A program made the translations under genes and the position numbers. A DNA stretch of 53,816 nucleotides from Chloroherpetonaceae bacterium (GTDB lineage: Bacteria; Bacteroidota; Chlorobiia; Chlorobiales; Thermochlorobacteraceae): contig JANRJQ010000002.1 in assembly GCA_033763895.1 (NCBI GenBank), positions 1-53,816 on the forward strand. Direction: 5' to 3'. The stretch's first letter is position 1, and every line of letters begins with the position of its first letter. The notes below the pieces were generated by a model that worked only from the letters and a program-made list of their open reading frames with translations, was not told the DNA's origin and did not search any database. Below are positions 10,302 through 24,168 of this stretch, piece after piece.

Positions 10302-10706
10302 TTAATCTGTCATAAAAATTGATATTTCAATCGAAAGCCTCTCGTAAACAAAATTGAACTCGTCGATCGTTGCATAGATTAATTTCCCGCAATCCATTAA
10401 CCGCGCAATCACTTCATTATTTTTCTTTGGCACATAGCCAACTTTTTCACCGCGTTCTGTTTCAACACGAATTGCAAATTCGTCATAAAGATTTTCTTGT
10501 TCGCGAATTAATTTTAGTCGGTCATTTTTACGAAGAGTTTTTGATAGTGTCTCAGGGTCAGGATTTTCTAAATGAAAAGTTCCGGCTATATAGGTTTCAA
10601 GAAGAAGAATTTCTTTTGTGAATGGGAGGGGAAGAGGGCTTTTTCCATCTGTAACCTCATTTAAATATTTCCCTAAATGGATGTTGAAAGGCGAGAGATT
10701 TGGCAT
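10302..10706 (-). CDS. HIRAN-domain protein
   Basis: 134-residue protein, most of which (about 35-130) resembles a stand-alone HIRAN domain. Visible motifs are LLETYIAGTFHL, the central LIREQENLYDEFAIRV and GEKVGYVPKKNNEVIARL near the end. HIRAN domains bind 3' single-stranded DNA ends in eukaryotic HLTF and occur in bacteria alone or fused to helicases and nucleases. The gene starts 11 bp after the J-domain-like gene and is almost certainly co-transcribed with it. No catalytic residues are expected. A role in recognising damaged or stalled DNA is inference from the domain. Confidence 0.7.
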   Translation of the reverse strand: MPNLSPFNIHLGKYLNEVTDGKSPLPLPFTKEILLLETYIAGTFHLENPDPETLSKTLRKNDRLKLIREQENLYDEFAIRVETERGEKVGYVPKKNNEVIARLMDCGKLIYATIDEFNFVYERLSIEISIFMTD

Positions 10707-11833: not shown

Positions 11834-12253
11834 TCAACGATCCGCAAGGAAGGCTTTACCCAAAATCATTATGTTTTTTTCCTTCAAGCGCAATTCTTCA
11901 ACTTTAATCCTCACGGCTTCCAACACTGCTTGTAAATTCAACTTAATGTCGCTATTAGTGAATCTCAAAAAAGAAATTTCATATTGCGAAATCACGTCTT
12001 CGCGTGCTTTGTCCCTTGCCTGTGCCTCGTCGGTAAAATGAACGCCTCCATCTAATTCAATCGCCAAGCGAACTTCGGGTGCGTAAAAATCAATTACAAA
12101 GCGCTCGACGCTATACTGCCGTCGAAACTTACAGTTTGCCAGCCGTCGGTCGCGTACACAATTCCAAAATATCGCCTCTGCTTCGGTTTGGTTCTGCCGT
12201 AACTTCCGTCGCAAGTCTTTCACTTCCGTCCGATTAAAGACGCGCTTGGTCAT
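11834..12253 (-). CDS. DUF559 endonuclease-like protein
   Basis: 139-residue PDDEXK-superfamily protein of the DUF559 (Vsr-like) type. Visible signs are LRQNQTEAEAIFWNCVRDRRL (quoted in part: TEAEAIFWNCVRDRRL) at the N-terminus, then Asp55 in FVIDFYAPE and Glu66-x-Asp68 in LAIELDGGVHF, the likely metal-binding site, and RFTNSDI near the C-terminus. The true start is the ATG at 12253; an upstream in-frame extension merely translates a palindromic repeat. Such proteins are predicted DNA nucleases, frequently solitary and mobile. It sits downstream of the methylase gene in the same orientation, separated by the cruciform repeat, and was probably not an original part of that operon. Confidence 0.8.
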   Translation of the reverse strand: MTKRVFNRTEVKDLRRKLRQNQTEAEAIFWNCVRDRRLANCKFRRQYSVERFVIDFYAPEVRLAIELDGGVHFTDEAQARDKAREDVISQYEISFLRFTNSDIKLNLQAVLEAVRIKVEELRLKEKNIMILGKAFLADR

Positions 12254-12326
12254 ATACTCTGCTTGGTTGATTAAACTTTCTACTGCATTGCATAAAATAA
12301 CGGTTGTGGTCGTGTGCAAGTGTGCT

Positions 12327-12412
12327 GACCTCACCCTGTTTCGGCTTGTGCCGAAACGACCCTCTCCTTGCAAGGAGAGGGACGTTGCCGCTTGCGGCAT
12401 CAGGGTGAGGTC
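12327..12412. repeat. 86-bp nested palindromic (cruciform) element
   Basis: Outer arms GACCTCACCCTG (12327-12338) and CAGGGTGAGGTC (12401-12412) are perfect 12-bp inverted repeats. They enclose three perfect hairpins: TTTCGGC/GCCGAAA (12339-12356), a 22-bp uninterrupted palindrome (12360-12381) and TGCCGC/GCGGCA (12386-12399). It is GC-rich compared with its surroundings. It supplies the last codons and the TGA stop of the methylase gene. It looks like a non-autonomous mobile or REP-like repeat; only one copy was seen in the window. Confidence 0.8.
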
Positions 12413-15400
12413 ACCACCACCGCAATCTCTTCCGCCGTTAAGCCATAAAGCGCATAAACCTTTTCATCAATCTCCCGCTCAAACCCCGCCGTCTCTTCGC
12501 CCACAGACTTCGCAGCAATTACCGTTTTTACCAATTCAACAATCTGTTTCTCTGTCTCGACTGAATCGGGTTTGGCGATGCCAAAAGCGTTTAGGTAATC
12601 GGGCGTAAAAGCAAAATAGCCGCCGCGAAAAATTGTACCTGTATTTTTTAAAAAATACCAAAGCAGTTCTGAGTTCAGTAAGCCTATCAAGTAATGATAG
12701 TCAAGTATAATTCCGCTCTTTTTAATCAAGCCAAAGCATTTTGTATTACCGTAAAAAATGCCTTCCAAATCAGAACTAAACTGACTTTTCAGCCCTAAAT
12801 ATGGACATATCAACTTTGGCTTATCAAACAAAGTCAAGTTTTTTGGATAGATATAACGAAACCAAAATTCGTCGTGCATCAATTTTCCATTTTCTCTTTC
12901 TCGCAAAACTTGTTCATTCTTTTTTAGATACGCATAGCCTTTTGGGAAAAGCGTTTTGATTTCTTGCTCCGTGTAAAGAGCGGCTTTACCATTGTTGAGT
13001 TTGTAAGGGAAAATTACATAGTTATTTGTTTTTAAGGTTTCGTAGCGATGCACTTGGTCGCCTTTAAGCAAGGGCTTTACAAGACCGCACTCGATTTCTA
13101 CTTCTTGGTCAAGTTCTTTGGAATAGCCTTTAATGATGTAGCCGCTGTTCGTGCAATTCAAGAGGAAATACACCGAGTCTTTAGATGTTGCAATCCCTTG
13201 AAAGATTTTCTCAAAAATGTCTTTAACCTTTAAAGGTTGCTGCTGAATTTTCTTGAGAATATTATGGGTTTGGTTATCTGAAAGAATCCACCCTTCGAGG
13301 GAAAGCGAATCAGGGTTAAATGTATTAAATCGTGAATCATCGAGTTCATTTAGAAAATGGTGAAGGTCTTCATTAGTCAATAAATCTCGGTTTAATTGAA
13401 AATAATTAAGGTGATTTGAATTGGGTATAAACCATTGCAGACCCGTATAAGTGGAAGCATTAAATACTTGATAGGCTTCAAAGGAAATTATTTTCTGTGC
13501 TGCTTTATAATTTTTCACGACTTCTCGAAGTCCTTTTCCAAATGCGGAATTTGTCCATTTTACAGGCATGATATAATTCAATATCCCTCTATGTGTGAGC
13601 AATTCGAGCCCTCTTTCCACAAAGAGTACATATAAATCAAAAGAGCCTGTCGCTGAATTAAAAATACTTGCAAGTAAATTGGCATAAGCACTATTAACCT
13701 TTCGTATTCCTTGAATTCGTAAGTAAGGCGGGTTCCCGATAATAACATCAAAGCCTTTTGAAATGCCAAACATCCAGTTTTTGTCAAAAAAGGGACTTGG
13801 TATTGAGTCATTGAATGGGTCCCACACGTCAAGTCTCGCTGCAATAGAAGCAAAAAGCGGCGGGCCTTCTTTCAAGTCTGTAAGCGTACTTTGTTTGGTG
13901 TTTTCGAATTTGGCTTTAATGAGTGCTTTCTTTTCAGGGTCGTGAGCATGATCGTAATAGGTATTTCTCAGCGTTTGCAGTTCGGTGAGGTGCTTTTTAT
14001 AGGCTTCAAAAAAGATATTAATCTCAGACGTTTTTTCAAGTTCCTCGAGTCCTAATCCTATTAAGGTATCGGCACAAATGAATTTAAAATCAAGGTTGGG
14101 CAGGGGCTTCAAGTTGAAATTGTGTTTTGTGTCTATGGGTTTATACTCTTCATCCAAAACCAATGAGAGCCACGCGCGAAGCCGTGCGATTTCGGTGGCC
14201 ATCGGCATAATATCCACGCCATAGATGTTGTGGCTTAAAATATCCTTTTTGAGTTCATAACGGGTTTTGAGTGTGCCCAGTGCTTCGTTTAACTCCACCA
14301 ATTGATGCAAGGCTCCCATCGGGAATGCACCCGAGCCGCACGCGGGATCCAATATTTTCACGTCTTCTATCCAACGAAGCAGCTTTTGACGGTCCTCTTT
14401 GCTTTCAATGGCTTTCTCGGGATTTTGAGAAAAGAGTTTGGTGAGGCTTTCATCAATCAATTTTTTTTCTGACTTGGAAAGTTCTGCTTTTTTGAGTGGG
14501 ATTGAAAGCTGTTGATGCGGTTTTTCTCCAAAAAGATTTGGAGTGGGTTCGGGGTTATTGAGTGCTTCGGTTTTGGCCGAAAGAATCTCCTCTTCCCACC
14601 GCGAGGCGAGAAATGTTTTGAGGCTTTCGCGCACCATATAATCCACAATTTCGCGGGGCGTATAAAACGCGCCAAAGGCTTTGCGGTCGTTGGCTAATTG
14701 TTCGGTTTCCTGATTTTGGCTGGCCAAAAGGTTTTCGAAAATGCGGCCAAGCATTTCGGGGTCAACGGCCACTTGTTGGTAGGTGCTGCTGCTTTCATCA
14801 ACCGTGAAGTCGTAGCTTTCGAGGGTGGAAACAAATTCTAAAAGCCACACATCAATGGAAAGCGAAGGAATTGCACGGTCTTCGGCGCTGAAATCAAAAA
14901 GGCCGCCATTGAGATACGGAACTTTAGAAAAATGTTCGGCTGCAAAGGGGTGGATTTCTGTATGCGCACGATCTTCAACTTTGGTATTGAGCGTTTTGAA
15001 AAAGAGCGCCGATAAAATGGTATTGAAAAAATCAGGATTTGCGTCAATGGCTTTGGTGCCAATTGATGCAGTCGGGATGATGCCCTTTTCCTTGAGAAAC
15101 CAACAAAAGATATAGCGGCCAATGAGGCGAATGGCAAATTGTTTTTGGAGCCTGTCTTCGATGGCAGGATACTGATAGCGAATAAGACCAAGCAGTTTAT
15201 CGAAACTTTCTTTTATGGCTTTGTAAAACTCCTTATTGACCTCTTTAATATCAAGCGACTCCCAAAGCACAGTTGCAATATCAGGTTTAGGAAGCCGTTC
15301 AATCCCTTGCCATTTATGGAGAATTTTTTCGTGTTGGGTAACCGTAAGCCGATTAGCAAATGTAATAATGCGCTTTTGATTGCCTTTATTAAGGACGATA

Positions 15401-15831
15401 AAAAGCTTTTGATAGTCGGGCGTAGTAACAAAATGGATAAAATAGGGACGAGTTGAAGGAAGCGCGGCGGGGCTTCCTTCACCACCTGCATTCATGAGAG
15501 ATTCAAAGGCTTGGTAACTTGTTAGGCCCGGGTCGTTATCGACCAGTTGAACGAGCGTGTCTTTGCGTATTTTTTTTAGAACAGCAAATCGCACGAGAAT
15601 TTTAGTATGGTATGCAGAAAGACGGAATAATTGTGCCTGATTGGTGATTGGCGCGCCTGCAAGCCACTCGCGGAGTTTTTGAGTTTGAGGTGTAATGAGT
15701 GGCGGTTTCTGAAATGGTTCTGCGGGAATGCCCATCCACTCTAAAAGGGCAGAAGAAAAGGCAAGAATATGGTCGCGTTTTCCTTCGGAAAATTTGGAAA
15801 GAAGTTCATTTAAGCGAGGTAATGACATCAT
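12400..15831 (-). CDS. Eco57I-type adenine DNA methyltransferase with TaqI-like specificity region
   Basis: 1143-residue N6-adenine methylase of the large Eco57I/type IIG kind. An N-terminal helical region (about 1-330) has RYIFCWFLKEKGII near 250 and precedes the SAM-binding motif I DPACGSGAF (495-503) and the catalytic NPPY motif (700-703). The C-terminal half carries a TaqI-type target-recognition region ending FRGGYFAFTPDYLNAFGIA. No N-terminal PD-(D/E)xK nuclease motif is obvious, so cleavage may be provided by the preceding PLD-helicase gene (12-bp gap, same strand). It would methylate the host recognition site and define target specificity. The last four residues and the stop lie in the cruciform repeat, so the original C-terminus may have been altered by its insertion. 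Confidence 0.85.
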   Translation of the reverse strand: MMSLPRLNELLSKFSEGKRDHILAFSSALLEWMGIPAEPFQKPPLITPQTQKLREWLAGAPITNQAQLFRLSAYHTKILVRFAVLKKIRKDTLVQLVDNDPGLTSYQAFESLMNAGGEGSPAALPSTRPYFIHFVTTPDYQKLFIVLNKGNQKRIITFANRLTVTQHEKILHKWQGIERLPKPDIATVLWESLDIKEVNKEFYKAIKESFDKLLGLIRYQYPAIEDRLQKQFAIRLIGRYIFCWFLKEKGIIPTASIGTKAIDANPDFFNTILSALFFKTLNTKVEDRAHTEIHPFAAEHFSKVPYLNGGLFDFSAEDRAIPSLSIDVWLLEFVSTLESYDFTVDESSSTYQQVAVDPEMLGRIFENLLASQNQETEQLANDRKAFGAFYTPREIVDYMVRESLKTFLASRWEEEILSAKTEALNNPEPTPNLFGEKPHQQLSIPLKKAELSKSEKKLIDESLTKLFSQNPEKAIESKEDRQKLLRWIEDVKILDPACGSGAFPMGALHQLVELNEALGTLKTRYELKKDILSHNIYGVDIMPMATEIARLRAWLSLVLDEEYKPIDTKHNFNLKPLPNLDFKFICADTLIGLGLEELEKTSEINIFFEAYKKHLTELQTLRNTYYDHAHDPEKKALIKAKFENTKQSTLTDLKEGPPLFASIAARLDVWDPFNDSIPSPFFDKNWMFGISKGFDVIIGNPPYLRIQGIRKVNSAYANLLASIFNSATGSFDLYVLFVERGLELLTHRGILNYIMPVKWTNSAFGKGLREVVKNYKAAQKIISFEAYQVFNASTYTGLQWFIPNSNHLNYFQLNRDLLTNEDLHHFLNELDDSRFNTFNPDSLSLEGWILSDNQTHNILKKIQQQPLKVKDIFEKIFQGIATSKDSVYFLLNCTNSGYIIKGYSKELDQEVEIECGLVKPLLKGDQVHRYETLKTNNYVIFPYKLNNGKAALYTEQEIKTLFPKGYAYLKKNEQVLRERENGKLMHDEFWFRYIYPKNLTLFDKPKLICPYLGLKSQFSSDLEGIFYGNTKCFGLIKKSGIILDYHYLIGLLNSELLWYFLKNTGTIFRGGYFAFTPDYLNAFGIAKPDSVETEKQIVELVKTVIAAKSVGEETAGFEREIDEKVYALYGLTAEEIAVVVTSP

Positions 15832-15843
15832 AAAAATTTGGAA

Positions 15844-18800
15844 TTAGACGGTGAACACTTGGAGAACATCAGCTAAGCTTGGTATTTCTTCTCCTGTTGA
15901 AGAATTGGGTTGTTCTGAAAACTTTAAGAACGTTTGAATAATGCCATCATCAAACGCGTTCCCACGGCGATTGGCGCGGTTGATGTCACGAATAAGGCGT
16001 CTGGTTTCTTTGATTAAAAAGGAATTCGAGGTATGATTAATGAAATCATCGACTTTCATAATATCGTTTTCGGCATACCCTAAAGTAATCATACGGCGAA
16101 GCAGCGTGCCGATTGCTTCACGATGGGCTTCATTGAAACGATTATTGTGCTGAGCAATCGGAATTTGGTAATACTCTTTGAAATGCTCTAAGTAGGTTTC
16201 GAAAGGTGCTTTTTCTTTGAAGTTATCTCTGAAGCGTTTATTTTGTTCAACTGATGCTTTTATATAGAGAAGTCCTTCATTAAGCGTAATCTGCTCCGGG
16301 ATAATTTCGCTTTTTTGGCGTTTAAAGAGGAAAAAATAGCCGGAAGACTCTGTTGTATCAGTACCTGCAGAAAAATGAACCAAATAATTAAACCCGTCAT
16401 CGTCTTTCTTCCGCTGGATTTTGCCCCATTTCCCTTTAGGAAGGTTGATAATGCTTTGTTTATAAGATTCTGAGAAATTGGTGTTTCGGTCAAATTCTCG
16501 TAAGTCTTCGAGGAAGATGTCATCGGTAGCCAGTAATTCGGAGGTTTCAAAGATGCGTTGAAACGCGGCGAGTCGTTTTTGTTCATCGCGGCTGTAAAGG
16601 TCTTCGGAAAATTCCTGTGAGATAGGCTCTTCGTCAAGAACGCTTTGGTCTGTGCCGACGGAATAGCGTATGAGATTAATCTTATCTTGAAGTTTACTAA
16701 CCAAATTCAAATAGCTTTCAAGTTGCTCGGTTGGTCTGAAATTATAGATGAATATTTCTTCAAACGGGCTCCCAATACGATTTATACGGCCATTGCGCTG
16801 AATCATACGAACCGGATTCCAATGCAAATCATAGTTGACAATCATTCCGCAATCTTGAAGGTTTTGCCCTTCAGAGAGTTTATCGGTAGCGAGTAAGTAA
16901 TCAATTTCTTTTTCACCCTGCTTCAAGGCGTATTTCTTCGCGTTTGGAGCAAAACGGCAAGCAAAGTTTTCAACCTCATTTTTTGTACCGAGTGCAAACT
17001 CCACATTTTTTCCTTTCGTCAGAAGTTGGGGGAGATGTTCTTTGAGATACTGAAGAGTATCGGCAAAGTAGGTAAAGACTAATACTTTTCGATCGTCATT
17101 TGTATTGAGGTGTTTTGCTAGAACCGCAATCTTATCATCTTTTTTGATCAGCAATTGAATTTGCTTTTTTAAGATGTCAAGAAGGCGGAGGTCTTTTTCG
17201 ATGTCTTCTTTGAGAGTTTCGATTCTAAAGTGCGCGTTGCTTGCTTCAATAGGTGCATTCTCGCCAAAGTCAAAGGAATCAATATCAATATCGAGTTCAT
17301 CTTCCTCGGCATTTTGTTCGTTATAGGAATCAAGCACTTTATTGAGAGCGTCTAAGTTTTTTATCGAAAAAATGCGATTGTATTTCAAGAGATTGTTTTT
17401 GAAATCGGTTAGCTTTTTTTCGTAAGTGATGATGGATTTTTGAATTGAAAAAATTGATGATTCCAGCCGCTTTAGGAATACCGTTCTAAAAATACCGTAA
17501 ATCCCGATTTGGCGAGTTAAAAGCCGGTTATCATCGACATCAAGATTAAGATCGTCTCGATTAATCCCGTAGTATTCGTGGCGGTAAATATTATAGCGAT
17601 AGCAAGGGAAACCAAGGCAAAGAATTGCAGAATAGATAATTTCGAGAGATGAGTGAATTGGTTTTTCTCTTTTTGAATAATGGTCAAAGAGGTCAAGTGG
17701 ATGTGCAAGAAACTTGAGTTCGGCTAAGCTATCGATATTGAAATTCAAAGCCTCAGATAGTAAAGGATATTCTTTAGAAAGTTTAAGAAGATCGGAACGG
17801 TATTGATTGGGAACTTCGTACTCTAAATTGTCTGGAATTGACTGAGGAAATTTTACTTTTTTTCCATTGATTTCAAGTCCCTCAGGGTATTCTTTTTCGA
17901 TTCCTTGCCGGGTACGTTTTACAATTACTTTGTTTAAGAGAGGGGTAAGTTGTTCTCTTAAACCGCTGTAATCAACAGACCTTGTTTCACGAATTTGTCT
18001 TTTAATTTCTTTTTGAATGCTTTGTATTCGGTCTTCGAAGGTGATGTATTCGCTTCGTGATCGATCATAAAACTTACCGATAGTTTGAAACTCGCCTCCC
18101 GATCCCAGCATGATTTGATTGGTAAGATCAGTGAGTTGGTTGTTTATGGGTGTTGCAGTCAGTAAAAGTGTTTTTGAATTTGGGTTAAGCCTTCGCCAGT
18201 CGATAAATTCTTTGAACCTATCTCCGCCGCTTCCACGAAGGTTATGGCTTTCATCAAACACAAATAACCCGATTGGGATGTTGTAAACTTCTCGAGTTTG
18301 CTTGATTTTGGCAATATCCTGTAAACTGTAAATTTCAGGTAAGTGGGCAAATTGAAAGTCATTAAATGCTGATTGCCACTGCGGTATGAGGCTTGCAGGT
18401 GCAACAATTACCACACGTTGATTTTTGATGTTTTTATAATAAGAAATGACCTTTATTGCCGTGTAAGTTTTACCTAACCCTACTGAATCAGAAAGCATTG
18501 CCACACTTTGGCGTTCAAGTTTTTTAATCAGTGAATTTGAATTTTTAACCTGAAAAGGAAAAAGTGTGGGTGAATTTTCGTCTTCTGTTTCTTTATCGAA
18601 GACAGAATTTTTCTCATCGTTTAAGTCTTCTCCAAAAATCCTGTAAAGTGAGTGGATATACATTTCATATGGGCTATAACACATAGAGCCGTGTCGGCTT
18701 AATGTCAGAATTTCTTCAACAAAAACCTTTGTCCAAGGTTCACTTTCTTGCCAAAGACTTTCGAACCAAGAGCGATGCGAAGGATGTTGGGAGATGTTTT

Positions 18801-19350
18801 TTCGGATATAATTAACCGTTGCGTTATTGTCTTCCACCTGATTGAGCTCTAAATTTCCTTCGAGTCCCTGTTTAGTGAAATTTGAGCTCCCAATTATTCC
18901 AATCGCATTTTCTTCTTCAGAGCCAAAGATGTAGCACTTCGCGTGGAGAAATGACTTTTTATATACGCGTATTTCAAAACGGCTGTCAGCATTTTCAGAA
19001 GAAAATTCTTGAAGGAGCTTTGCTGCAGAAGAATACTCGTCTTTAAAGCTTAAGGTTTCAAGATCTCTTTTGAGGTACTTCTGAGGAAAATCGGGATCTG
19101 GTTTTGAAGGATTTTTTATTTGATATGATCGCACACTTGGTTCTTCACCTAAAAGCAGGTGCAAACGAGTATTTCCTCTATTAAAAAAATAAGATAGTTC
19201 CGATTGTAGTAAAGCAATTGCTGGTAAATCCCAGTAACCGGTAGCAATTGAAACTTCAGATACCGATGGGTTTTTGAAAAGATTCTTTAAGGTTTCTGAT
19301 AAGAGGTAATCTTTGCTTGAATTATCAATAAGCTTAAAATTGCTTTTCAT
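15844..19350 (-). CDS. PLD-nuclease/SNF2 helicase fusion, restriction/defence
   Basis: 1168-residue protein. Residues about 10-190 form a phospholipase-D-type nuclease domain with the HxK motif FLHAKCYIF (His136, Lys138) followed by GSSNFT. Only one HxK is evident, so an active site would need dimerisation. A SNF2/SF2 motor follows: Walker A GLGKT (291-295), DESH (366-369), TATPINN, a long insertion, then the C-terminal lobe with FTYFADTLQYLKEH, TDKLSEGQNLQ and QRNGRINRIGS (about 845-860). PLD nucleases with SF2 motors act in restriction systems such as NgoAVII and CglI, where they are separate subunits. The neighbouring methylase suggests a two-gene restriction system in which this protein translocates and cleaves. 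No frameshift was seen. Confidence 0.85.
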   Translation of the reverse strand: MKSNFKLIDNSSKDYLLSETLKNLFKNPSVSEVSIATGYWDLPAIALLQSELSYFFNRGNTRLHLLLGEEPSVRSYQIKNPSKPDPDFPQKYLKRDLETLSFKDEYSSAAKLLQEFSSENADSRFEIRVYKKSFLHAKCYIFGSEEENAIGIIGSSNFTKQGLEGNLELNQVEDNNATVNYIRKNISQHPSHRSWFESLWQESEPWTKVFVEEILTLSRHGSMCYSPYEMYIHSLYRIFGEDLNDEKNSVFDKETEDENSPTLFPFQVKNSNSLIKKLERQSVAMLSDSVGLGKTYTAIKVISYYKNIKNQRVVIVAPASLIPQWQSAFNDFQFAHLPEIYSLQDIAKIKQTREVYNIPIGLFVFDESHNLRGSGGDRFKEFIDWRRLNPNSKTLLLTATPINNQLTDLTNQIMLGSGGEFQTIGKFYDRSRSEYITFEDRIQSIQKEIKRQIRETRSVDYSGLREQLTPLLNKVIVKRTRQGIEKEYPEGLEINGKKVKFPQSIPDNLEYEVPNQYRSDLLKLSKEYPLLSEALNFNIDSLAELKFLAHPLDLFDHYSKREKPIHSSLEIIYSAILCLGFPCYRYNIYRHEYYGINRDDLNLDVDDNRLLTRQIGIYGIFRTVFLKRLESSIFSIQKSIITYEKKLTDFKNNLLKYNRIFSIKNLDALNKVLDSYNEQNAEEDELDIDIDSFDFGENAPIEASNAHFRIETLKEDIEKDLRLLDILKKQIQLLIKKDDKIAVLAKHLNTNDDRKVLVFTYFADTLQYLKEHLPQLLTKGKNVEFALGTKNEVENFACRFAPNAKKYALKQGEKEIDYLLATDKLSEGQNLQDCGMIVNYDLHWNPVRMIQRNGRINRIGSPFEEIFIYNFRPTEQLESYLNLVSKLQDKINLIRYSVGTDQSVLDEEPISQEFSEDLYSRDEQKRLAAFQRIFETSELLATDDIFLEDLREFDRNTNFSESYKQSIINLPKGKWGKIQRKKDDDGFNYLVHFSAGTDTTESSGYFFLFKRQKSEIIPEQITLNEGLLYIKASVEQNKRFRDNFKEKAPFETYLEHFKEYYQIPIAQHNNRFNEAHREAIGTLLRRMITLGYAENDIMKVDDFINHTSNSFLIKETRRLIRDINRANRRGNAFDDGIIQTFLKFSEQPNSSTGEEIPSLADVLQVFTV

Positions 19351-19420: not shown

Positions 19421-19545
19421 GTTAGCTCTTCGAGAAAAGCTCGACATTAAAGACGCCCTCGACACGCTTAATTTTTTCGACAAGGCGGTAGAGGTAGTCG
19501 ATATCTTTCGTTTGAAGAATCGCGATGCATTAAACTATTCCGTTT
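19421..19545 (-). pseudogene. relA/spoT 3'-end fragment, copy C
   Basis: This matches the last about 120 bp of the relA/spoT gene at roughly 78% nucleotide identity by eye. The minus-strand reading frame is intact to a TAA stop and yields the RelA tail (RLVEKIKRVEGVFNVELFSKS; shared core EKIKRVEGVF). It has no start or upstream gene. It lies 70 bp upstream of the PLD-helicase gene and occupies most of the 357-bp gap 19351-19707. Interpreted as a scar of insertion or duplication at the relA 3' end. Confidence 0.75.
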
Positions 19546-19592
19546 TTTTGAATATATAGGGATTGTGTGAGAGTTTTTGATACTTCAAAAAA

Positions 19593-19677
19593 GTGTTATT
19601 GAATACTTTGAATCAATCTTCGTTTTCAATGTTTATGAATAACGGGAATTGAAATTTATTAGAGGCATGAAGCATTT
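19593..19677 (-). pseudogene. DUF2283 antitoxin-like gene remnant
   Basis: This is clearly homologous to the last about 28 codons of the intact DUF2283 gene at 21296-21511 (EMLHASN, FQFPLFI, then the same terminal TTCAAAGTATTCAATAA). A one-base deletion near the end shifts the frame. The 5' part is missing; the TPR gene ends 30 bp away. With copy C it repeats the order DUF2283-relA 3' end found at 21121-21523. Confidence 0.7.
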
Positions 19678-19707
19678 CAAAAATTCATATTCATTCTTTC
19701 ATTCATC

Positions 19708-21120: not shown

Positions 21121-21263
21121 TTAGCTCTTCGAAAATCGATCAACTTTGAAAACACCTTCGACGCGTTTGATTTTTTCAATAAAGCGGGAATGATGATCGG
21201 TGTCTTTGACTTGAAGAATCACGGTGCATTCAAATATTCCGTCTTTTGCATTCAGGGTGATGA
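21121..21263 (-). pseudogene. relA/spoT 3'-end fragment, copy B
   Basis: About 140 bp matching the 3' end of the real relA/spoT gene at close to 89% identity by eye. The minus-strand frame is open to a TAA stop and encodes the same tail (core EKIKRVEGVFKVDRFSKS). Most differences are synonymous or conservative. There is no start codon or upstream domain. It lies between the TPR gene and the DUF2283 gene and explains a spurious plus-strand reading frame at 21055-21291. Confidence 0.8.
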
Positions 21264-21295
21264 AATTGAGTGTATAGTAAATATTTCTTAAAGGG

Positions 21296-21511
21296 TTATT
21301 GAATACTTTGAATCATTTTCTCATTTTCAACTTCTATGAATAACGGGAATTGAAGGTTATTCGAAGCATGAAGCATTTCAAGGCCTACGATGTTTCCATC
21401 TTTATCAAAGTCTAGAATCAGACCTTTCTTTATTTCATCTGATTCCTTAATTTTTGCACCTGAAAATTCAATTCTCAATATATCCACAGATTTATCATAA
21501 CTGATTTTCAT
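21296..21511 (-). CDS. DUF2283 protein, putative antitoxin
   Basis: 71 residues of the DUF2283 family: MKISYDKSVDILRIEFSGAK, then KGLILDFDKDGNIVGLEML. The start at 21511 is set by a good Shine-Dalgarno sequence (GGAGG, 5 nt upstream) and by its one-base overlap with the DUF4258 stop (TAATG), implying translational coupling. DUF2283 genes often accompany DUF4258 genes, and the pair is regarded as a putative toxin-antitoxin module; that function is inferred, not demonstrated. A TTG four codons upstream is an unlikely alternative start. A truncated relative lies at 19593-19677. Confidence 0.82.
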   Translation of the reverse strand: MKISYDKSVDILRIEFSGAKIKESDEIKKGLILDFDKDGNIVGLEMLHASNNLQFPLFIEVENEKMIQSIQ

Positions 21512-21811: not shown

Positions 21812-23995
21812 TCAGCTCTTCGAGAATCGCTCGACCTTGAAAACGCCCTCGACGCGTTTGATTTTTTCAACGAGGCGGGAGAGATGATCGGTGTTTTTGA
21901 CTTGAAGAATCACGGTGCCTTCAAACATTCCGTCTTTTGCATTGAGAGTGATAGAGCGGATATTGGTTTCTGCCTTTAAGATGGCTTGGGTAATGTTATT
22001 CGTCATTCCAATTTTATCTTCTCCGAAAATTTTAAGTCCGGCAAGGAAGTTGTTTTCTTTTGTATTGCGCCAGCGTACGCTCACGACTTTAGGGCTGCGG
22101 GTAAGGTTTTCATCGGTCATGTTTTTGCAGTTTCGGCGGTGAACTTTCACCACACCGCCGGCTGTCACCAACCCGATAATATCATCCCCCGGAACGGGAT
22201 TGCAGCACTTGCCGTAAGCAAAGGCAATATTTTTAAGCCCTTCAATTACGATAGCCGATCCAGTAACCTCTGATTGTTCATCAGTTTCAAAACGCGCTTC
22301 TTTAACAAAACTTTCAAACTCTGCCAATTGCTTTTCAGCTTTTTGCTCAGGCGTCTCAACTTCGACTTTAACCGACTCGGGGTCAATTTGCTTTGTTGCA
22401 AGCGCTTGAAAGAAATCTTGCGCTGTGTTGATTCCAAACCGGCGAGCGATTTTTGCGATATCACCTTCTGAAAAAACTTTTTTTGTTTTTTGAACGGCTT
22501 TCGTCCAAAGGCTTTTGCCTTCTTCAATTTCCTTTCTGCGCTGATCGTTGAGCAATTGTCGAATTTTTACCTTCGCGCGATGTGTAACAACAATCTTTTC
22601 CCAATCGGGTTTTGGCGTTTGATTTTTTGAGGTAATGATTTCGACTTGATCGCCCGATTTTAGTTTGGTAGAAATCGTTACAATCTTTCCGTTAACTTTA
22701 GCCCCAATACATTTTGAACCCACTTCGGTATGAATTTCAAACGCAAAATCAAGTGGGGTTGAACCCACCGGGAGCATTTTCATATCACCTTTTGGTGTGA
22801 AAATGTAGATTTCATCTTGATACAAATTCATTCGAAAGCCTTCCATAAACTCGCGCGGCGAGGAGGCGTTTTCAATGAGTTCGCGTGCCCATTTCAGCAC
22901 ATTATCAAAGGCTTTATCATCGGTTGTGATTTTCTCTTTATACCGCCAATGCGCGGCAACCCCGCTTTCGGCGAATTCATCCATCTTCTTGGTTCGAATC
23001 TGGATTTCAATTAATTGGCCATTGGGTCCGACAACCGTGGTATGAAGGGATTGATACCCGTTATGTTTGGGAACTGAGATATAATCTTTAAAGCGTTCCG
23101 GAATTGGTGTGAATTGCTGTGTAATGTACCCGTAAACGGCAAAGCATTCTGAAGAGTTATCAGTGTCGAGAATAATTCTGATGGCGTAAAGATCATAGAT
23201 TTGATCGAAACTTTTTCCTTTATCGACAATCTTTTTATGAATCGAGTAAAGGTGTTTCGGTCGGTAAGCGATGCTGAACTTAAAATTCCGTTTATGCAGT
23301 TCCTTTTCAATCGTAGCGGCAAAGCGCGCTAAATAATTTTGACGATCTTTATCCTGAAAATTGATTTGAGAAGACAGGGTTTCGTAGGCTTCGCGATCGA
23401 TGTACTTAAAGGCCAAATCTTCTAACTCCGATTTCATTCTTCCAAGCCCAAAGCGATTAGCAAAGGGCGCGTAGATATCACGAGTTTCAAGTGCGATTTT
23501 CAACTGGCGGTGCGGTGGTAGTGCATCGAGTGTACGCATATTGTGCAACCGATCGCAAAACTTGATGAGAATCACTCGGATGTCGTTAATCATTGAAAGC
23601 AGCATTTTGCGAAAAGATTCTGCTTCTTTGATTTCACGATTGGCAAAAAAGCCGGCAATTTTGGTCAGTCCTTCAACAATCGCCGCGACTTCCTCACCAA
23701 ACTCTTCATTCAAGTCGTCAAGGCTGTAATCGGTATCTTCAATCACATCATGCAAAAGCGCGGCGGCGACAGAGACATCATCAAGCGGGAGTTCGTTCAG
23801 CATGATTTTTGCAACCTCAACGGGGTGAAAGAAATAGGGCTCTCCGGAAGCACGTTTCTCCTCACTATGAGCACGGTAACACAAAAAAAACGCACGGCGA
23901 ATCAAATCCTCGTCAAACCGATGAAGCTTTTCGCGGCATAGCGAAAGCAACTCATCAAGTTTGACATAGTGCTGCGGTTCAATTTGTGCAATCAT
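21812..23995 (-). CDS. relA: bifunctional (p)ppGpp synthetase/hydrolase RelA/SpoT
   Basis: 727 residues from the ATG at 23995; a longer frame to 24112 adds 39 residues unlike the family. Domain order: HD hydrolase with HDVIEDTD (His82-Asp83), synthetase with RPKHLYSIHKK, RFKDY and HNGYQSLHT, TGS (about 385-450), a Cys-rich segment AYGKCCNPVPGDDIIG, and a C-terminal ACT domain. RFKD (301-304) matches the RxKD signature of bifunctional Rel/SpoT enzymes rather than the ExDD of synthesis-only RelA, and the HD site is intact, so both making and degrading (p)ppGpp is expected. Two partial copies of its 3' end lie downstream. Confidence 0.95.
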   Translation of the reverse strand: MIAQIEPQHYVKLDELLSLCREKLHRFDEDLIRRAFFLCYRAHSEEKRASGEPYFFHPVEVAKIMLNELPLDDVSVAAALLHDVIEDTDYSLDDLNEEFGEEVAAIVEGLTKIAGFFANREIKEAESFRKMLLSMINDIRVILIKFCDRLHNMRTLDALPPHRQLKIALETRDIYAPFANRFGLGRMKSELEDLAFKYIDREAYETLSSQINFQDKDRQNYLARFAATIEKELHKRNFKFSIAYRPKHLYSIHKKIVDKGKSFDQIYDLYAIRIILDTDNSSECFAVYGYITQQFTPIPERFKDYISVPKHNGYQSLHTTVVGPNGQLIEIQIRTKKMDEFAESGVAAHWRYKEKITTDDKAFDNVLKWARELIENASSPREFMEGFRMNLYQDEIYIFTPKGDMKMLPVGSTPLDFAFEIHTEVGSKCIGAKVNGKIVTISTKLKSGDQVEIITSKNQTPKPDWEKIVVTHRAKVKIRQLLNDQRRKEIEEGKSLWTKAVQKTKKVFSEGDIAKIARRFGINTAQDFFQALATKQIDPESVKVEVETPEQKAEKQLAEFESFVKEARFETDEQSEVTGSAIVIEGLKNIAFAYGKCCNPVPGDDIIGLVTAGGVVKVHRRNCKNMTDENLTRSPKVVSVRWRNTKENNFLAGLKIFGEDKIGMTNNITQAILKAETNIRSITLNAKDGMFEGTVILQVKNTDHLSRLVEKIKRVEGVFKVERFSKS

Positions 23996-24168
23996 AAAAT
24001 CAAATGGTTCAATTACTCCGGTTAATCTTTTGAGGAGAAAGTAATCATATTCGTTTGAAAAGGTTAATCGTTTAATCTTTAAGAATAAACCAAATTTCTT
24101 CTTCAAAAACAATTTGAAAGAAAAGTAGGTTCTCCGAATAAGATTTCAATAATTCAATTCAAGTATTT

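What the first reader, a model, noticed from the sequence alone, without database searches (positions are those of the whole stretch)
12400..19350. Two-gene restriction/defence operon: PLD-SNF2 fusion plus Eco57I-type methylase
A phospholipase-D nuclease domain (His136, Lys138) is fused to a complete SNF2 motor (GLGKT, DESH, QRNGR). The next gene, 12 bp away, is an N6-adenine methylase with a TaqI-like specificity region but no obvious nuclease. In NgoAVII and CglI the PLD nuclease and SF2 motor are separate subunits; here they are one chain and the methylase supplies specificity. It also resembles a split type ISP enzyme. It may be a distinct restriction subtype.
Basis: partly seen in the sequence, partly recalled or inferred. 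Interest (0 to 1): 0.68.

Follow-up and report, generated by a model that had tools for sequence, protein, structure and literature searches.

The report
Two-gene PLD-SNF2 restriction-modification operon
Two neighbouring bacterial genes very probably form an ATP-driven restriction-modification system, one protein marking the cell's own DNA and the other cutting unmarked invaders; the same gene pair was described on a dairy-bacterium plasmid in 2018 but apparently never tested in the laboratory.

Summary
15844-19350(-) encodes an intact PLD-SNF2 fusion; 12 bp downstream, 12400-15831(-) encodes an intact Eco57I-type m6A methylase with a TaqI_C specificity region and no recognisable nuclease. Fourteen orthologues (59-64% identical) keep every catalytic motif; 12 have the methylase next door, usually behind an Xre regulator that the window lacks. 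The motor has no hypervariable part, whereas the methylase TRD has only ~10-25% identity, so specificity lies in the methylase. Independent support: homologous operons in Lactococcus and a Bacteroidota genome carry a silent inverted TRD plus a serine invertase, and TRDs are swapped between plasmids. Best explanation: an ATP-dependent two-subunit restriction-modification system working like a split Type ISP/IIG enzyme with a BfiI-like PLD nuclease. It fails membership tests for CglI/NgoAVII, Type ISP, DISARM and DUF499/BREX-related systems. The architecture is not new: L. lactis pLd8 orf33/orf34 (PMC6098607, 2018) has it, PLD-ATPase fusions were noted in 2014, and SauUSI is a single-chain PLD-SF2 enzyme. 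It is a new member of a sequence-described, apparently untested kind.

The parts
15844..19350 (-). PLD-SNF2 fusion protein (1168 aa), predicted restriction/translocation subunit
   Evidence: Pfam PLDc_2, RE_NgoFVII, SNF2-rel_dom, Helicase_C; PADLOC C3a139 'HKD+Snf2' 1e-53; 14 orthologues at 59-64% identity
18721..19350 (-). N-terminal PLD nuclease domain (residues 1-210); H136, K138, N157, E168 invariant
   Evidence: alignment A5; profile hit to BfiI, PDB 2c1l, E=1.9e-6, aligned across the HxK...N...E stretch
16636..18567 (-). SNF2-type ATPase motor (residues about 262-905): GLGKT 18466-18480, DESH 18244-18255, QRNGR 16786-16800
   Evidence: all motifs invariant in 15 sequences
15844..16503 (-). 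C-terminal region of the motor protein (residues 950-1168), least conserved part (0.55-0.61 mean identity) but not hypervariable; function unknown
12400..15831 (-). Eco57I-type N6-adenine methyltransferase with C-terminal TRD (1143 aa), predicted modification and specificity subunit
   Evidence: Pfam Eco57I 4.3e-36, TaqI_C 2e-11; PADLOC REase_MTase_IIG 7.3e-98
15142..15831 (-). methylase N-terminal domain (residues 1-230); no conserved D/E-x-K; tracks motor phylogeny; candidate motor-docking part (inferred)
   Evidence: alignment, Mantel r=0.51 p=0.017; followed by an MmeI-like helical spacer
13462..14349 (-). methyltransferase catalytic region: DPACGSG 14329-14349, NPPY 13723-13734
   Evidence: invariant in all aligned relatives
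12583..13077 (-). TaqI_C-like target recognition domain (residues 919-1083), hypervariable
   Evidence: Pfam TaqI_C; mean pairwise identity 0.10-0.24 over residues 801-1100
15832..15843 (-). 12-bp spacer between the two genes (one operon predicted); the genes overlap by a few bases in most relatives
11834..12400 (-). DUF559 (Vsr/PD-(D/E)XK-like) ORF behind the methylase; adjacent, probably not a core component
   Evidence: Pfam DUF559 1.6e-25; absent downstream of the orthologous pairs that I read

Best explanation
The two genes encode an ATP-dependent, two-subunit restriction-modification system. The methylase binds a probably asymmetric site through its TaqI_C-like TRD and methylates adenine, protecting the host chromosome. 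The PLD-SNF2 protein has no sequence specificity of its own; it docks on the methylase (most likely its N-terminal half) when the site is unmethylated, its SNF2 motor translocates along double-stranded DNA using ATP, and two PLD domains dimerise into one metal-independent HxK active site that breaks invading DNA. It works like a Type ISP/Type I enzyme split into two chains, with the Mrr-like nuclease replaced by a BfiI-like PLD nuclease and the methylase resembling a Type IIG enzyme without its nuclease. Shown by sequence: domains, intact motifs, gene linkage, location of hypervariability, TRD swapping in relatives. Inferred: complex formation, translocation, cleavage, the modified base and the site.
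For: All catalytic motifs of both proteins are invariant over 15 and 11 orthologues. The methylase is adjacent in 12 of 14 orthologous loci, and an Xre regulator precedes the pair in 11. The PLD domain's best solved relative is the restriction endonuclease BfiI. Motor identity is 0.55-0.91 along its whole length, against 0.10-0.24 in the methylase TRD, so specificity most likely sits in the methylase. Methylase N-terminal and middle parts track the motor tree (Mantel p=0.017 and 0.004) while catalytic and TRD parts do not (p=0.31, 0.26). In the homologous Lactococcus operons a silent TRD lies inverted next to a serine invertase, and the expressed TRD of pJM1F is 99.2% identical to the silent TRD of pUCCL629A. 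A Bacteroidota relative has the same arrangement with the same 12-bp repeat core, CGACCGATTTTA, the codons of RPIL in RPILRG. An 11.8-kb L. plantarum plasmid carries the pair with little else. An independent group inferred the same split of roles for L. lactis pLd8 (PMC6098607).
Against: No biochemistry, methylome or phage data for any member was found. The window copy lacks the usual regulator and its methylase is shortened by about 10-20 residues at the C terminus, so it might be partly degraded. Structure models were poor (mean pLDDT 57.6 and 48.2), so neither the docking surface nor the fold of the methylase N terminus was tested. The Mantel tests rest on 11 related sequences.
Confidence: 0.6

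Rival explanations
1. Type III- or CglI-like enzyme: a restriction-modification pair with the same division of labour, but cutting at fixed positions near the site, with the SNF2 ATPase used as a switch rather than for long-range translocation.
For: A BfiI-type PLD nuclease cuts at fixed distance; CglI and NgoAVII combine a PLD nuclease and an SF2 ATPase and cut 6-7 nt from the site (PMC4267653).
Against: There is no B3 domain and no C5 methylase; the motor is SNF2/RapA-like. No sequence test here separates fixed-distance from collision cleavage.
Confidence: 0.2
2. BREX/DISARM-like defence: the methylase marks self and the PLD-SNF2 protein blocks or degrades invading DNA through a sensing route of its own (replication intermediates, modified bases) rather than through the methylase TRD.
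For: The motor resembles DrmD, BrxHI and HmaA, and the methylase also resembles PglX and DrmMI. BREX and DISARM pair SNF2 motors with PglX/DrmMI-type methylases.
Against: No DrmA/DrmB, PglZ, BrxC or DUF499 gene is near; the pair stands alone, even on a small plasmid. Invertible TRDs imply that site specificity matters for the whole system. The PLD active site is invariant, which argues for cleavage.
Confidence: 0.13
3. The window copy is decaying or only the methylase is active (orphan methylation).
For: No Xre gene, shortened methylase C terminus at a palindromic insertion, degenerate relA 3' copies beside the operon.
Against: Both long ORFs are intact with every catalytic motif retained.
Confidence: 0.07

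Closest known systems
L. lactis FM03P plasmid pLd8 orf33/orf34 putative Type II(G) RM system (PMC6098607, 2018)
   Same: Two adjacent genes: PLD-SNF2-helicase protein and an m6A methylase with TaqI_C and no nuclease; a small ORF and a recombinase gene lie beside them; same proposed roles
   Different: Only about 27% identical over part of the motor; a separate lineage in the tree; opposite gene order
Type ISP (LlaGI/LlaBIII)
   Same: Order of functions nuclease-motor-m6A methylase-TRD; one TRD for an asymmetric site
   Different: ISP is one chain with an Mrr-like PD-(E/Q)XK nuclease (PMC3874165); here two chains with a PLD nuclease and an SNF2 motor
Type IIG (MmeI/Eco57I)
   Same: Methylase matches Type IIG models and the MmeI helical spacer
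   Different: No N-terminal PD-(D/E)XK nuclease motif; nuclease is in a separate, predicted ATP-dependent protein
CglI/NgoAVII/BceSIV
   Same: PLD nuclease working with an SF2 ATPase, plus a methylase
   Different: Those have separate R (PLD-B3) and N (DEAD-Z1) proteins and a C5 methylase (PMC4267653)
SauUSI (Type IV)
   Same: PLD nuclease and SF2 ATPase in one chain, in that order
   Different: SauUSI carries its own SRA domain for 5mC (PMC7913695) and has no methylase partner
Type-2 BR (DUF499-centred, 'Hma'-like) systems
   Same: HKD/PLD-SNF2 fusion with an N6-methylase
   Different: They have a DUF499 ATPase and DUF3780; in the locus read here the methylase is of DUF1156 type and the motor about 24% identical and in another clade (PMC12839542)

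Membership tests
PLD-SNF2 + Eco57I/IIG-like methylase RM pair (as pLd8) | PLD and SNF2 domains fused in one chain | tested here: met
   Pfam hits in 15 of 15 orthologues
PLD-SNF2 + Eco57I/IIG-like methylase RM pair (as pLd8) | Adjacent m6A methylase with TaqI_C and no nuclease domain | tested here: met
PLD-SNF2 + Eco57I/IIG-like methylase RM pair (as pLd8) | ATP-dependent restriction and cognate m6A methylation | not testable with these tools
   needs wet-lab work; no report found for pLd8 either
Type ISP | Nuclease, motor, methylase and TRD in one polypeptide | tested here: not met
   two ORFs here and in all relatives read
Type ISP | N-terminal Mrr-like PD-(E/Q)XK nuclease | tested here: not met
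   PLD domain instead
CglI/NgoAVII | R protein = PLD + B3 TRD; separate DEAD-Z1 ATPase | tested here: not met
   no B3 or Z1 profile hit; fused SNF2
CglI/NgoAVII | C5-cytosine methylase | tested here: not met
   Eco57I-type m6A methylase
Type IIG (MmeI/Eco57I) | PD-(D/E)XK nuclease in the methylase chain | tested here: not met
   no profile hit; the acidic positions of the only candidate motif vary among relatives; fold not tested because the model was poor
Type-2 BR / Hma | DUF499 ATPase in the locus | tested here: not met
   only DUF499 gene found in the genome is on another contig, C8
Type-2 BR / Hma | DUF3780 protein | tested here: not met
   no match in the genome
DISARM | DrmA, DrmB and DrmC with DrmMI/DrmD | tested here: not met
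   no such neighbours among the ORFs scanned; DrmD model 147 bits against cut-off 610
SauUSI-like Type IV | C-terminal SRA domain, no methylase partner | tested here: not met
   no SRA hit; methylase adjacent

The most novel reading that the evidence does not exclude
These pairs are a distinct, biochemically unknown class of translocating restriction-modification enzyme: two subunits, SNF2 motor, metal-independent PLD nuclease, specificity only in an exchangeable methylase TRD that some lineages switch by programmed inversion at the RPILRG codons.
Probability: 0.5. Interest if true: 0.55.

Novelty: new member of a known kind. Interest (0 to 1): 0.4.

Why it matters
If right, it is a recurrent two-protein restriction enzyme outside Types I-IV and ISP as usually defined, whose specificity can be changed by swapping a TRD in one subunit while the nuclease-motor stays the same. 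The three loci of this kind in one genome and the invertible TRDs in relatives make it testable how SNF2 motors and PLD nucleases cooperate in restriction, and add a probable phase-variable methylation system for methylome work.

Tried and rejected
Structure prediction of both proteins with 11 and 15 aligned sequences gave low-confidence models (pLDDT 57.6 and 48.2); I made no fold search with them. A hidden nuclease in the methylase N terminus was considered (consensus PD...EQK around residues 138-153) and rejected because the acidic positions are not conserved and the window has N at 151. The DUF559 ORF as a third nuclease subunit was rejected because the relatives read lack it. Island borders by synteny with family members failed: neighbouring genes are not conserved. 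No tRNA or Rfam feature in the region. Attribution to BR systems was rejected by gene content and tree, though long branches make the deep tree unsure.

Full report
Observation. The two ORFs are as described: PLD-SNF2 at 15844-19350(-), 1168 aa, and methylase at 12400-15831(-), 1143 aa, with 12 bp between them and no internal stops. Profiles give PLDc_2, the NgoFVII PLD domain, SNF2 and Helicase_C for the first, and Eco57I, MmeI_Mtase, MmeI_hel and TaqI_C for the second; nothing nuclease-like is found in the methylase. PADLOC's best model for the first is 'HKD+Snf2' (1e-53) and for the second Type IIG (7e-98). No NCBIfam equivalog passes its cut-off.

Relatives. A genome scan found fourteen orthologues at 59-64% identity over the full length, thirteen from Bacteroidota and one from a MAG labelled Victivallis. 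The methylase is the next gene in twelve, one contig ends there, and one has a single ATPase gene in between. Eleven have an Xre-type regulator directly upstream, generally overlapping the motor gene; the window has none. None of the family members searched with this protein has a close orthologue, and few genomes of the phylum do, so horizontal acquisition is likely. The same genome has two further PLD-SNF2 + Eco57I-methylase loci, from other lineages: one with a DUF1016/YhcG nuclease gene in between (contig C14) and one with a KilA-N gene in between (C10), plus a separate DUF499 system (C8). Relatives of the C14 and C10 types elsewhere are also next to such methylases, while a further branch sits in larger multi-gene loci. 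In a maximum-likelihood tree the window clusters with the Bacteroidota orthologues, the Lactobacillales plasmid proteins and L057 (100/100), apart from BR-system helicases; the deep branches are long and unsure.

Where specificity lies. Over 15 orthologues the motor protein has 0.55-0.91 mean identity in every 50-residue block. Over 11 methylases residues 801-1100 fall to 0.10-0.24, while residues 351-400 reach 0.89. The motor is thus the same machine working with many TRDs. Distances in the methylase N-terminal and middle parts follow those of the motor (Mantel p=0.017 and 0.004), those in catalytic and TRD parts do not (p=0.31 and 0.26), as expected if the N-terminal half docks on the motor and the catalytic-TRD half is exchanged. 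This is suggestive, with 11 sequences.

Invertible TRDs. In L. cremoris pJM1F the pair is followed by a TaqI_C fragment on the opposite strand and an Mpi-family serine invertase gene; pUCCL629A has the same layout. The expressed TRD segment of pJM1F (L037 7794-8289) is 99.2% identical to the silent, inverted one of pUCCL629A (L044 16708-16213), and the silent one of pJM1F is 85% identical to the expressed one of pUCCL629A. A Bacteroidota relative (L057) also has an inverted TaqI_C fragment and a resolvase-family gene. Both taxa share the inverted core CGACCGATTTTA, in Lactococcus the codons of RPIL within RPILRG. Inversion is inferred from swapped states between plasmids; both orientations in one culture were not seen. 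No such arrangement was seen in the window.

Nuclease. The PLD profile's best solved match is BfiI (2c1l, 1.9e-6), aligned through the HxK motif and the following N...E stretch; H136, K138, N157 and E168 are invariant in alignment A5. BfiI and SauUSI form one active site from two PLD domains (PMC7913695), so dimerisation is expected here (inferred). The methylase N-terminal region has no conserved D/E-x-K and runs into the MmeI-like helical spacer (a weak match), so it looks like a Type IIG scaffold without its nuclease.

Comparison with what is known. The architecture was described in 2018 for L. lactis FM03P pLd8 orf33/orf34, with REBASE calling the methylase Type IIG and the authors placing restriction in the PLD-SNF2 protein (PMC6098607). 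That record was read here by name and length; it is a distant lineage with the opposite gene order. Fusions of PLD nuclease and ATPase were counted in 2014 (PMC4267653), SauUSI is one, and Type-2 BR helicases are another. A BR Type-2 locus read here (L088) has DUF499, DUF3780, a DUF1156 methylase and a motor 24% identical over 342 residues; the window has neither DUF499 nor DUF3780 nearby. Each established class fails at least one tested defining feature (membership table). I found no experimental study of any two-gene member in the held library, which lacks most subscription journals.

Verdict. A restriction-modification pair of a kind already described from sequence but, as far as I found, untested. 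Restriction-modification with specificity in the methylase is well supported (about 0.8 over both cleavage modes); the split-ISP translocating mode is put at 0.6 and fixed-distance cutting at 0.2.

Noticed in passing
window 19422-19680, 21121-21381 and 21814-21938: The 3' end of the relA/spoT gene (21812-24112) is present in two further degenerate copies (75-78% identity), one just upstream of the PLD-SNF2 gene and one upstream of the TPR gene, as if modules had been inserted repeatedly behind relA.
   Followed up: partly
window about 12322-12417: An imperfect palindromic element, single copy in this genome, lies across the end of the methylase gene and supplies its stop codon; the methylase C terminus is about 10-20 residues shorter than in relatives.
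   Followed up: partly
L021 (contig C14) 5172-13481: Second PLD-SNF2 + Eco57I-methylase locus in the same genome, with a DUF1016/YhcG PD-(D/E)XK gene between them.
   Followed up: partly
L022 (contig C10) 6935-14497: Third PLD-SNF2 + Eco57I-methylase locus in the same genome, with a KilA-N protein gene between them; methylase matches a full-length PADLOC IIG model.
   Followed up: partly
L023 (contig C8) 7345-17001: SNF2 helicase with a NOV_C domain, DUF1156 methylase and DUF499 ATPase: a Type-1 BR/Hma-like system.
   Followed up: no
L037 7794-10230, L044 15046-17359, L057 1568-3554: Silent inverted TaqI_C TRD plus serine invertase next to homologous pairs; likely phase-variable methylation specificity on dairy plasmids and in Bacteroidota. 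In pLd8 (L090) a small ORF and a recombinase gene also lie beside the pair, but no such test was made.
   Followed up: partly
L041 6536-16307, L066-L071: A different branch of PLD-SNF2 proteins sits in larger loci, e.g. with DUF4391, a DUF2130 protein, a site-specific methyltransferase and a DEAD/DEAH helicase: apparently a multi-gene Type III-like system.
   Followed up: no
window 10302-10706: Stand-alone HIRAN domain protein; it matches the PADLOC candidate family PDC-M03B over its HIRAN part.
   Followed up: no
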